This document shows positions 13,286 through 16,696 of a DNA stretch of 31,134 bases, in pieces. The DNA is taken from positions 1 through 31,134 of the IMG/VR virus record IMGVR_UViG_3300042879_001547. The stretch is one strand, 5' to 3'. Within the stretch, counting starts at the first letter, position 1. The number at the start of each line of letters is the position of its first letter. Both the position numbers and the translations under genes were made by a program. The DNA comes from a virus. The notes beneath the pieces were generated by a model. That model searched no databases. It saw only the letters and a program-made list of their open reading frames with translations, and was not told the origin of the DNA.

Positions 13286-14461
13286 ATGGTTTCTCCAGCG
13301 TATGTTGTTGGTTATGGAATGATCGATGCTTTAGGTAATAATCCAGGTGATTGTTTCCTGAATATGGTGAATAATAATGATTATTCTGTTGAGTTAGACT
13401 TTATGGGTGATCATAAGATTCATCGTGGTATTCCTGTCGATGATTCTTTGCTGCAACTTCCTGAGGAGTTTACTCCTAAGATTCTTGCTAACATGACCCG
13501 AGCACAGCAATTTGCACTTCATGCGACCGATCAGGCATTAAAGATGTCTGGTCTTCCTTTGTCTTCAAATGTTGCTGTGATTGTATCATCGGTTTCGAAC
13601 GATGTGGAGTTTTTGGATGGTAACTTTCAGAAACTAAAGGATAATAAGAGAGTTAATCCATTTAAGGTTGTCAATCGTATTCCTGATATTATTTCAGGAC
13701 AGATTTGTAGTCATTATGGTTTTATGGGAGCATCTTTTGCACTCTATGCTTCTTGTGCAACGGGAATGTACTCGCTTGATTATGCGATGCGAATCCTTGA
13801 TGAATATGATTATGTCATCGTTGGTGGTGCAGATGCTGGTGTATTTGAGATTGCAATGAAATACTTTGCTGCCATTGGTGCTCTTGGAAATACCAATGCA
13901 CCTTTCGATGACAGCAGAGAAGGGTTTGTAATGGGTGAGGGTGCTGGTGTTTTGATTCTGCAGAGTGAAGAGAAGGTCCAAGAATTTAATAGCACTAAAC
14001 ACGCTAAACTGTATCCTGTTGGTGCTGGATCTGATGCTTTTGATCTCACTGCCCCTGCTGATGATGGGCGAGGAGCAAAGATTGCACTTGACAAAGCACT
14101 CAAGGGAATTGATCGTATTGATGCTGTAAATGCACACGCTACATCAACTCCTGTTGGTGATCCTGTAGAGTATCAAGTTATCACGGATAGATACCCTAAT
14201 ACTCCAATCTATGCACCAAAGAGTAAGATTGGACATACTCTTGCTGCTGCGAGTATTCTTGAGGCAATCTATGCAATCGTATCAATGAAGAATAAATTGA
14301 TTCCTCATTGCCAAAATATGGTAGAATGTTCTTATGATGTACATAAAGTTCTTGTAAAAGAACCAACTGCAATGACTGGTGATGTATTGAGAACTCTCAA
14401 CAATTCATTTGGATTTGGTGGTAAATGTGCTTGTCAAGTTATTGAGGTGAGTCATGACTGA
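13286..14461 (+). CDS. Beta-ketoacyl-ACP synthase II-like enzyme (391 aa)
   Basis: A full-length condensing enzyme of the KAS I/II (FabB/FabF) thiolase fold, slightly shorter than the usual 400-415 residues. The catalytic set is intact: Cys157 in ASCATGMYS, His284 in NAHATSTPVGDPVE, Lys314 and His317 in KSKIGHTLAA, plus the C-terminal NNSFGFGG loop (372-379). The family joins an acyl chain on the Cys with malonyl-ACP. No ACP, ketoreductase or acyltransferase gene is in the window, so it would have to use host partners or modify a single step. AAGGAG precedes the ATG by 5 bases. It overlaps the first oxygenase gene by 8 bases in an ATGACTGA junction, so the three genes are probably made together. 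Confidence 0.88.
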   Translation: MVSPAYVVGYGMIDALGNNPGDCFLNMVNNNDYSVELDFMGDHKIHRGIPVDDSLLQLPEEFTPKILANMTRAQQFALHATDQALKMSGLPLSSNVAVIVSSVSNDVEFLDGNFQKLKDNKRVNPFKVVNRIPDIISGQICSHYGFMGASFALYASCATGMYSLDYAMRILDEYDYVIVGGADAGVFEIAMKYFAAIGALGNTNAPFDDSREGFVMGEGAGVLILQSEEKVQEFNSTKHAKLYPVGAGSDAFDLTAPADDGRGAKIALDKALKGIDRIDAVNAHATSTPVGDPVEYQVITDRYPNTPIYAPKSKIGHTLAAASILEAIYAIVSMKNKLIPHCQNMVECSYDVHKVLVKEPTAMTGDVLRTLNNSFGFGGKCACQVIEVSHD

Positions 14462-15095
14462 ACCAGCGTTTTGGGATTCATATCTTCTAGAAGAACCTTG
14501 TTGCAAAGAGTTTCTGGATAACTGGTCCAATCTAAAGAGAGATGTTTTCTTTGCAATCGAAAAGTATCCACAGTTTTTTGTTGATTATCCAAAATATAAG
14601 GTAACTCTTCCAGGAACTGATCAGAAGGTTAGAATGTATGAAAATACTTGGAAAGTAACTGCCTGGTCCAAATTTGATGAAATGTACTCTGAAGTGGATC
14701 GAGTTGGTAAAAAACTTGGAGATAGTGTAGAAAAACTTATTAATCGTTATATTAAAAAGAATATTCCTGATACATATGCAATCATTGAGAAGTATCAACA
14801 GCAGGATGTTCTTTCTAATGTATTTGTAAGTATTCTTTCTCCAGGAACTGTGATTCACCCCCATCAAGGACACTCAAAAGAATATATGAGGTGTCATATT
14901 GGTCTAGTTTGTGATCCTGGTTGTAAGATCACTGTTGGAGATGAAACCAAAACTTGGGAAGAAGGAAAACTGATTGCATTTAAAGATGGCGGTCCTTATT
15001 ACCACAGTGTGAAACATGAGGGAAATTGTGATAGAATTATATTCTCTTTTGATCTTAAGTTAGATTATCTAAAACAATATATTCCAGAACTATGA
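14454..15095 (+). CDS. Aspartyl/asparaginyl beta-hydroxylase-like oxygenase, copy 1 (213 aa)
   Basis: The Asp/Asn hydroxylase pattern is clear: IHPHQGH (His135, His137), MRCHIGL (Arg146, His148), a DPGCKITVGDE strand pair, EEGKLIAFKDGGPYYHSV with His184, and Arg194. In this family iron is held by two histidines and 2-oxoglutarate by an arginine. Members hydroxylate peptidyl Asp/Asn, lipid-linked groups or free metabolites. The neighbouring synthase makes a carrier- or lipid-bound substrate conceivable, but that is inference. It is about 45% alike by eye to the next gene, a tandem duplicate. A 4-base overlap links them. Confidence 0.82.
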   Translation: MTEPAFWDSYLLEEPCCKEFLDNWSNLKRDVFFAIEKYPQFFVDYPKYKVTLPGTDQKVRMYENTWKVTAWSKFDEMYSEVDRVGKKLGDSVEKLINRYIKKNIPDTYAIIEKYQQQDVLSNVFVSILSPGTVIHPHQGHSKEYMRCHIGLVCDPGCKITVGDETKTWEEGKLIAFKDGGPYYHSVKHEGNCDRIIFSFDLKLDYLKQYIPEL

Positions 15096-15751
15096 GTTTA
15101 GTAGAAATTATCGAACCTCCCTTTTGGGAAGATGAACTGACAGAAGTTCCTCTTTATCAATCTCTTCTCAAGAATTATGAGAAGATTCGGGAAGAAGTAT
15201 TAAAGTTTATTGATAGACCAAACGGAATGTTTGACTATCCAAAGTATGATGTTTATCGGGATGATGGATATACCAAGATTCCTTTGTATGAAAATCTGTG
15301 GAAGGCAGTTCCATTTTCACAATTTATTGGTGAGTTCATCTACACAGAAGGGGAAGATCTTATTGCACATTACGTGAACAAGATTGTATCCTTTACAAAA
15401 GAAAACTGCCCTACTCTTGCTGAAAGTATCAAAGATCTGGAGGATCAGAACTATATTGCAAATTGCTTTATAAGCAAACTAACTCCAGGTTCTGTGATCA
15501 ATCCTCATCGAGGTAGAACAGATCAGTTTATGCGAGTTCATATGGGATTGGATTGTGATCCAGGTTGTGTGATCACAGTTGGTAATGAGCAGAGAGTTTG
15601 GGAAAATGGCAAGATCATTGCATTTAAAGATGGTGGACCTTACCCACATTCTGTGAAGCACAACGGAACAAAACAAAGAATTATTGCATCTTTTGATGTT
15701 GATCTCAATTATCTTAAAACCATTGTTCCTAAGTTAAACCAATTTCCTTGA
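15092..15751 (+). CDS. Aspartyl/asparaginyl beta-hydroxylase-like oxygenase, copy 2 (219 aa)
   Basis: Paralog of the preceding protein, colinear throughout: FDYPKYDV, YENLWKAVPFSQF, INPHRGRTDQFMRVHMGL (His139, Arg148, His150), CDPGCVITVGNE, FKDGGPYPHSVKHNG (His186), Arg196. The first His of the HPH motif in copy 1 is Asn137 here, while the residues thought to bind iron are kept. Two diverged but complete copies suggest two substrates or two positions. The last gene of the synthase-oxygenase set; 92 bases without a clear gene follow. Confidence 0.82.
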   Translation: MSLVEIIEPPFWEDELTEVPLYQSLLKNYEKIREEVLKFIDRPNGMFDYPKYDVYRDDGYTKIPLYENLWKAVPFSQFIGEFIYTEGEDLIAHYVNKIVSFTKENCPTLAESIKDLEDQNYIANCFISKLTPGSVINPHRGRTDQFMRVHMGLDCDPGCVITVGNEQRVWENGKIIAFKDGGPYPHSVKHNGTKQRIIASFDVDLNYLKTIVPKLNQFP

Positions 15752-16051: not shown

Positions 16052-16696
16052 ATGTTAAAAGACCTTGTAAATGAATGTTTTGATTTAAAAAAGTCATCTT
16101 TACCTGAATGGTTAGATGAAACGATCGAAAACGATGTTGCTATTATCAATAGTTATGCTTGGACTGCCGACCAATGCCGTCGTATTCGTATTTGTGATCT
16201 TGACATTAAGGGGAAGTTTACCGCCGAGACCCTAGTCATCTATCCCGAATATTGTTATGAAACTCCGATATTTGGTACGGAATATATTCGAATTGGAACC
16301 AAGAAGTATTTTGGTGCGACTGATTTTCACCCTGTTCGTGGCGATACAGAGTACGAACAACAGTACGTTTTAAACTATCTTGGCGAGTTTCCTGATAGAG
16401 ACCAGGAAAATTCTAAATTTTATGATCTGACTAAGTATTTCTCCAAGAAGTTCTGGACTTCCAAGAGAGATTGTGATTTTTATGAAGAATATATAGAGAT
16501 AACAAGAAAATACTTGGAACAATATAAATTATGTCTTGCGGAAACTGAACAAGGATCTGTTGACAAACAGTTCCATCAAGACTATGATGTTCACATGGCA
16601 GCGAAAGATCCAGCACACGGGATCTTAAAAGCCTATTACTCTGAACAATTTGCAACTGATTATATACACACCTTTCTTTTCGATCTCAATGGATAA
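16052..16696 (+). CDS. Ferredoxin-dependent bilin reductase (214 aa)
   Basis: Family features in order: CRRIRICDLD (42-51), the LVIYPEYCYETPIFGTEYI core (61-79), GATDFHPV with Asp91, YDLTKYFSKKFW (124-135), and KDPAHGILKAYY with Asp186, ending TFLFDLNG. Asp91 and Asp186 align with the two proton-donating aspartates of phage PebS (Asp105 and Asp206). The family reduces biliverdin to phycobilins with ferredoxin electrons. Cyanophages carry several subtypes (PebS, PebA, PcyA, PcyX-like); I cannot decide which this is, and the DPAHG form looks closer to PebB/PcyX-like proteins. The gene is directly coupled to cp12 by 8 bases. Confidence 0.85.
   Translation: MLKDLVNECFDLKKSSLPEWLDETIENDVAIINSYAWTADQCRRIRICDLDIKGKFTAETLVIYPEYCYETPIFGTEYIRIGTKKYFGATDFHPVRGDTEYEQQYVLNYLGEFPDRDQENSKFYDLTKYFSKKFWTSKRDCDFYEEYIEITRKYLEQYKLCLAETEQGSVDKQFHQDYDVHMAAKDPAHGILKAYYSEQFATDYIHTFLFDLNG

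What the first reader, a model, noticed from the sequence alone, without database searches (positions are those of the whole stretch)
13286..15751. Coupled beta-ketoacyl synthase and tandem Asp/Asn hydroxylase-like genes
Seen: an intact condensing enzyme (Cys157, His284, Lys314, His317) overlaps a first oxygenase gene by 8 bases, which overlaps a second, related oxygenase gene by 4 bases. Established: condensing enzymes act on ACP-bound chains, and Asp/Asn hydroxylase-like enzymes hydroxylate peptides, lipids or metabolites. Inference: a three-gene cassette in which a chain is extended or condensed and then hydroxylated, perhaps changing host lipids or making a small product. It lacks an ACP, so host ACP would be used.
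Basis: partly seen in the sequence, partly recalled or inferred. Interest (0 to 1): 0.78.

Follow-up and report, generated by a model that had tools for sequence, protein, structure and literature searches.

The report
Phage fatty-acid-type synthase with linked hydroxylases
A virus that probably infects cyanobacteria carries a fatty-acid-building enzyme gene overlapping two genes for oxygen-using enzymes, and the same enzyme recurs in about 80 other aquatic phage fragments, often beside different oxygenases and fatty-acid genes, which suggests that these phages modify acyl chains during infection.

Summary
The trio is real: a FabF-like ketoacyl synthase (KAS, 13286-14461) overlaps one AspH-like Fe/2OG oxygenase gene by 8 bases, which overlaps a second by 4. 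The genes are under purifying selection. The KAS belongs to a virus-centred clade distinct from bacterial FabF/FabB, seen in about 80 IMG/VR loci and in no cultured phage found here. The exact trio is not obligatory: KAS relatives have zero to three AspH-like genes nearby. But KAS-oxygenase linkage recurs with several oxygenase families: 21 of 34 non-redundant loci have one within four genes, and a Pfam-only scan gives 14/118 near against none among listed families of 129 far proteins. Other KAS loci add fatty-acid genes: desaturases (13/34), FabI, AcpS, ACP, acyl-ACP desaturase, MaoC. Best explanation: an acyl-chain extension and oxidation module using host carrier protein. The KAS role is supported by context in relatives; the hydroxylase substrate (acyl-ACP, product or protein) is open. 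fabF plus desaturase was already noted in freshwater pelagimyophages, so this is a new variant of a known kind.

The parts
13286..14461 (+). FabF-like beta-ketoacyl synthase of a virus-centred clade; catalytic Cys157, His284, Lys312, His317
   Evidence: Pfam PF00109/PF02801; FabF fold Z about 52; residue mapping; dN/dS 0.086 against L001
14454..15095 (+). AspH-like Fe/2OG oxygenase 1; motifs PHQG...RCH and GPYYHSV; overlaps the KAS gene by 8 bases
   Evidence: PF05118 86 bits; motifs; overlap
15092..15751 (+). AspH-like Fe/2OG oxygenase 2; His139, Gly141, Arg148, His150, His186, Arg196; overlaps oxygenase 1 gene by 4 bases
   Evidence: PF05118 91 bits; AlphaFold2 pLDDT 89.9; human AspH Z 19.8

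Best explanation
The KAS is a phage version of FabF that condenses an acyl chain held on host acyl carrier protein (inferred from fold, complete active site and the fatty-acid genes beside its relatives). The two AspH-like Fe(II)/2-oxoglutarate oxygenases, whose overlapping genes suggest coupled translation, then hydroxylate that chain or the molecule it ends up in (inferred). The three genes are one local form of a wider phage module: a viral KAS plus variable oxygenases plus, in some phages, desaturase, FabI, AcpS, ACP or a MaoC dehydratase, that changes host acyl chains or lipids during infection. Shown: gene order, overlaps, active-site completeness, purifying selection, recurrence. Inferred: catalysis, substrate, product and benefit to the phage.
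For: KAS domains, fold and active site. AspH-like domain, fold and iron/2OG residues. One clade of 35 viral KAS plus three Deinococcales, split from FabF/FabB with SH-aLRT 100. 21/34 non-redundant loci have an oxygenase within four genes; density 48/254 near against 17/576 far (profiles seeded partly from neighbours, so biased upward). Pfam-only scan: Asp_Arg_Hydrox 8, 2OG-FeII_Oxy_3 5, PhyH 1 among 118 near proteins, none among the listed families of 129 far ones. Partners in relatives confirmed by Pfam: FabI 240 bits, AcpS 42 bits, FA_desaturase, MaoC; ACP, FA_desaturase_2 178 bits, PhyH. Desaturase in 13/34 loci. The membrane desaturase profile matches acyl-CoA desaturase structures, E 2.7e-8.
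Against: In 13/34 non-redundant KAS loci no oxygenase was detected within four genes (several loci are cut by contig ends and divergent families may be missed). AspH-like proteins occur in phages without a neighbouring KAS, e.g. P-HM1 TlmH, and one is core to pelagimyophages (PMC7029224). AspH1 is only 57% identical between window and L001 while the KAS is 88%, so the two do not evolve in step. The iron site resembles the protein hydroxylase AspH. No fatty-acid partner gene was recognised in the window itself.
Confidence: 0.55

Rival explanations
1. Two independent activities in one transcription unit: the KAS alters host fatty acids, while the AspH-like enzymes hydroxylate Asp/Asn residues of a phage or host protein. 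Gene overlap only reflects compact phage genomes.
For: AspH-type iron site, and best fold match is human AspH, Z 19.8 against 13.2 for the next family. AspH-like genes without a neighbouring KAS in P-HM1 and others. KAS without AspH nearby in L002, L005, L006, L040, L041.
Against: KAS is linked to several different oxygenase families, more often than distant genes are. Bacterial relatives checked lie in NRPS clusters, i.e. carrier-bound chemistry.
Confidence: 0.28
2. A small carrier-protein-based biosynthetic pathway that makes a specialised product (for example a hydroxylated acyl compound joined to an amine), rather than remodelling bulk membrane lipid.
For: Related loci add an amidinotransferase (profile match to inosamine-phosphate amidinotransferase 1bwd E 1.6e-23, also HsvA and SxtG), a class-III aminotransferase and SpeD, ACP and AcpS, plus arrays of oxygenases on both sides of the KAS.
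Against: None of these extra genes is in the window; no loading or release enzyme was recognised; the neighbours may be unrelated metabolic genes.
Confidence: 0.12
3. The KAS is a catalytically altered or regulatory protein, e.g. a decarboxylase or an ACP-sequestering decoy that limits host fatty-acid synthesis.
For: The segment GSGIGG of FabF is replaced by SSVSND or similar, and an 8-10 residue loop after residue 203 is missing in the viral sequences compared.
Against: All four catalytic residues are kept in 16 diverse members; co-occurrence with FabI, desaturases and AcpS in relatives fits synthesis rather than blockade.
Confidence: 0.05

Closest known systems
FabF (beta-ketoacyl-ACP synthase II)
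   Same: Fold (Z about 52 over 382-386 residues) and Cys-His-Lys-His active site
   Different: About 26-31% identity; 228 bits against a FabF equivalog cut-off of 494; separate clade; changed segment and missing loop
Human AspH oxygenase domain and PF05118 family
   Same: Fold Z 19.8, His-x-Gly...His iron site and Arg/His 2OG residues
   Different: About 26% identity, no TPR domain, substrate unknown
LpxO / OlsC acyl hydroxylases
   Same: Same Pfam family; the only NCBIfam matches of both proteins
   Different: 27-41 bits against cut-offs of 500 and 450
Pelagimyophage PMP-D lipid genes (PMC7029224)
   Same: fabF, stearoyl-CoA desaturase, speH and a 2OGFeDO protein reported in freshwater SAR11 phages; loci such as L013 show this combination
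   Different: The window has an AspH-like pair and no desaturase was found in it; its DNA similarity is to Synechococcus T4-like phages
acpP-fabF-fabG of Rhodobacteraceae prophages (PMC8224337)
   Same: Phage-carried fatty-acid elongation genes
   Different: Reported in the bacterial fab gene order; their sequences were not compared here

Membership tests
Elongating ketoacyl synthases (FabB/FabF type) | N- and C-terminal ketoacyl synthase domains | tested here: met
   PF00109 E 3e-27, PF02801 E 2.2e-20
Elongating ketoacyl synthases (FabB/FabF type) | Catalytic Cys-His-Lys-His | tested here: met
   Cys157, His284, Lys312, His317
Elongating ketoacyl synthases (FabB/FabF type) | Condensing activity on ACP-bound chains | not testable with these tools
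   Needs enzyme assay
FabF equivalog | Score over TIGR03150 cut-off | tested here: not met
   228 bits against 493.75; separate clade
Asp/Asn beta-hydroxylase family PF05118 | Domain match over gathering score | tested here: met
   86 and 91 bits against 22.6
Asp/Asn beta-hydroxylase family PF05118 | AspH-like iron and 2OG residues (His-x-Gly, His, Arg) | tested here: met
   PHQG/PHRG, GPYYHSV/GPYPHSV, Arg196
Asp/Asn beta-hydroxylase family PF05118 | Hydroxylation of peptidyl Asp/Asn | not testable with these tools
   Needs assay
LpxO or OlsC lipid hydroxylases | Score over NCBIfam cut-off | tested here: not met
   27-41 bits against 500/450
Phage fatty-acid module | Own ACP in the locus | tested here: not met
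   No ACP found in the window; among the loci only L008 has one
Phage fatty-acid module | Recurrent KAS linkage to acyl-modifying genes | tested here: met
   (in relatives; in the window only the oxygenases)

The most novel reading that the evidence does not exclude
Aquatic phages share a modular, virus-evolved carrier-protein pathway built on a phage-specific ketoacyl synthase, with swappable arrays of oxygenases, desaturases and amine-adding enzymes, that makes a hydroxylated acyl product not made by the host.
Probability: 0.25. Interest if true: 0.85.

Novelty: new variant of a known kind. Interest (0 to 1): 0.6.

Why it matters
Phage lipid genes are known mainly as single desaturases or host-like fab genes. 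A phage-specific KAS clade that recurs beside oxygenases and other fatty-acid enzymes, in phages similar to Synechococcus phages, in SAR11-phage-like contigs and in a 333 kb viral contig, would mean that acyl-chain chemistry is a repeated target of infection. It gives about 80 loci and a concrete set of genes to test, and may give a context for some of the many 2OG oxygenases of aquatic phages whose purpose is unknown.

Tried and rejected
Chance ORFs or decaying genes: rejected by dN/dS and conserved overlaps. Recent capture from a cyanobacterial host: unlikely, the KAS is 27% identical to the Synechocystis KASII structure 1e5m and outside the FabF clade (no picocyanobacterial FabF was in the tree). 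Cultured phages: INPHARED hits to the KAS were 26-35% identical and appear to be mostly bacterial contigs or host-type fabB/fabF genes. Fixed trio: rejected. LpxO control: the family search found no hit in the 14 control genomes, so the LpxO iron site could not be compared directly. A search with AspH2 alone in IMG/VR found nothing. First genome-contig scan empty; the second gave two Deinococcales loci with chromosomal neighbours. Promoter scan no better than shuffles. Roitman 2018 on cyanophage desaturases is not held, so its gene neighbourhoods were not checked. The near/far test is seed-biased and was repeated with Pfam alone. Related loci are not independent, so the P values are indicative only. 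Gene starts in relatives come from a simple longest-ORF caller, so overlaps of more than about 15 bases may reflect the wrong start.

Full report
What is there. The three genes are as described: KAS 13286..14461, AspH-like 14454..15095 and 15092..15751, overlapping by 8 and 4 bases. Pfam gives both ketoacyl synthase domains and Asp_Arg_Hydrox twice. The window is a 31 kb virus record with short 80-86% DNA matches to the Synechococcus T4-like phages S-PM2 and S-SRM01 and a bilin reductase at 16052..16696, so a cyanobacterial host is likely but not proven.

KAS. The AlphaFold2 model (pLDDT 88) matches FabF with Z about 52, and the Synechocystis KASII at 27% identity. It scores 228 bits to the FabF equivalog, cut-off 494. 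With a diverse profile, 116 IMG/VR stretches encode a relative and 80 were kept. A tree places 35 viral KAS and three Deinococcales sequences together, apart from FabF/FabB with SH-aLRT 100, the Deinococcales nested among viral ones. Two of these Deinococcales genes have chromosomal neighbours (ClpX, ClpP, Lon; YchF), so virus-to-cell transfer is likely. Hits in cultured phage records are 26-35% identical and appear to be mostly bacterial sequence. Two differences from FabF seen across the viral sequences compared are the segment SSVSND (or similar) for GSGIGG and a missing loop after residue 203; they suggest, but do not show, another substrate or another ACP contact.

Oxygenases. Both carry His-x-Gly...Arg-x-His...His...Arg, the AspH arrangement. 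The model of the second (pLDDT 89.9) matches human AspH with Z 19.8, next family 13.2. Relatives carry one (L001), two (window, L042, there with His-x-His) or three (L019, L044, L045, L047, L049) copies; in the three-copy sets the first copy has lost the distal His (GPYFISM) but is under purifying selection, dN/dS 0.02-0.04. KAS relatives L002, L005, L006, L040 and L041 have none detected within four genes. L003 has an AspH-like gene on the other strand, converging on the KAS.

Linkage. In 34 non-redundant loci, 21 have an oxygenase within four genes, of several families: AspH-like arrays, a Pfam-invisible family with conserved HxD...H...R, 2OG-FeII_Oxy_3 types and PhyH. Because the detecting profiles were partly seeded from neighbours, I repeated the test with Pfam alone: 14 matches among 118 near proteins, none among the listed families of 129 distant ones. 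Only 25 of the 74 distant families are listed, so single matches could be hidden; with three hidden the Fisher P is 0.004. Related loci are not independent, so this is indicative.

Fatty-acid genes. Thirteen of 34 loci carry a desaturase. SAR11-phage-like loci among L051-L065 have AcpS, desaturase, two oxygenases and KAS close together, with FabI a few genes upstream in seven of them. L008 has an ACP, P4H-like oxygenases, KAS, an acyl-ACP desaturase and PhyH. L070 has a MaoC-like protein, an AspH-like protein and a desaturase. L010/L013-type loci add SpeD and an amidinotransferase. This is the main reason to read the window KAS as acyl-chain chemistry. None of these partners was found in the window.

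How it most likely works. Host holo-ACP delivers an acyl chain; the KAS extends it; the AspH-like enzymes hydroxylate the chain or its product. Bacterial relatives of the second oxygenase lie in NRPS clusters in the three plasmid cases checked, compatible with carrier-bound substrates. The rival, protein hydroxylation unrelated to the KAS, remains serious because of the AspH-type iron site and the AspH-like genes without a neighbouring KAS in other cyanophages.

Known work. PMC7029224 noted fabF, stearoyl-CoA desaturase, speH and a 2OG enzyme in Fonsibacter phages; PMC8224337 reported acpP-fabF-fabG in prophages; PMC10653327 reported fabF/fabG/fabZ in viral samples at 1,000 m. I found no report, in the open papers searched, of a phage-specific KAS clade with oxygenase arrays. 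Verdict: new variant of a known kind.

Noticed in passing
L051:2781-9200, L053:3073-9227, L064: SAR11-phage-like loci with FabI, AcpS, membrane desaturase, two Pfam-invisible oxygenases and KAS: the most complete phage fatty-acid module seen.
   Followed up: partly
L008:3669-10804: ACP, P4H-like oxygenases, KAS, acyl-ACP desaturase and PhyH within 7 kb.
   Followed up: partly
L019:7378-8052, L044:9219-9893: First of three AspH-like paralogues lacks the distal iron His (ISM for HSV) yet has dN/dS about 0.04; possibly a non-catalytic partner.
   Followed up: partly
L035:3040-4455, L036:7920-9161, L102: Cell-encoded members of the viral KAS clade in Deinococcales genomes, alone among chromosomal genes in the two checked.
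   Followed up: partly
L013:10222-11304 and relatives: Amidinotransferase (profile matches inosamine-phosphate amidinotransferase, HsvA, SxtG) near SpeD and an array of AspH-like genes.
   Followed up: no
L032:3919-4995, L031:3851-4927: Class-III aminotransferase and desaturase upstream of the KAS.
   Followed up: no
window:16052-16696: Bilin reductase only about 25-29% identical to cyanophage PebS/PcyA, just downstream of the trio.
   Followed up: partly
window:9950-10564: Further 2OG-Fe(II) oxygenase-like protein (phrog_61).
   Followed up: no
window:21340-22675: DNA methyltransferase matches in two overlapping ORFs, possibly a split gene.
   Followed up: no
window:28086-28826: HNH/homing endonuclease on the minus strand.
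   Followed up: no
window:11721-12503: Protein with a C-terminal MazE/AbrB-like domain a few genes upstream of the KAS, with relatives at the same place in L001 and L019.
   Followed up: no
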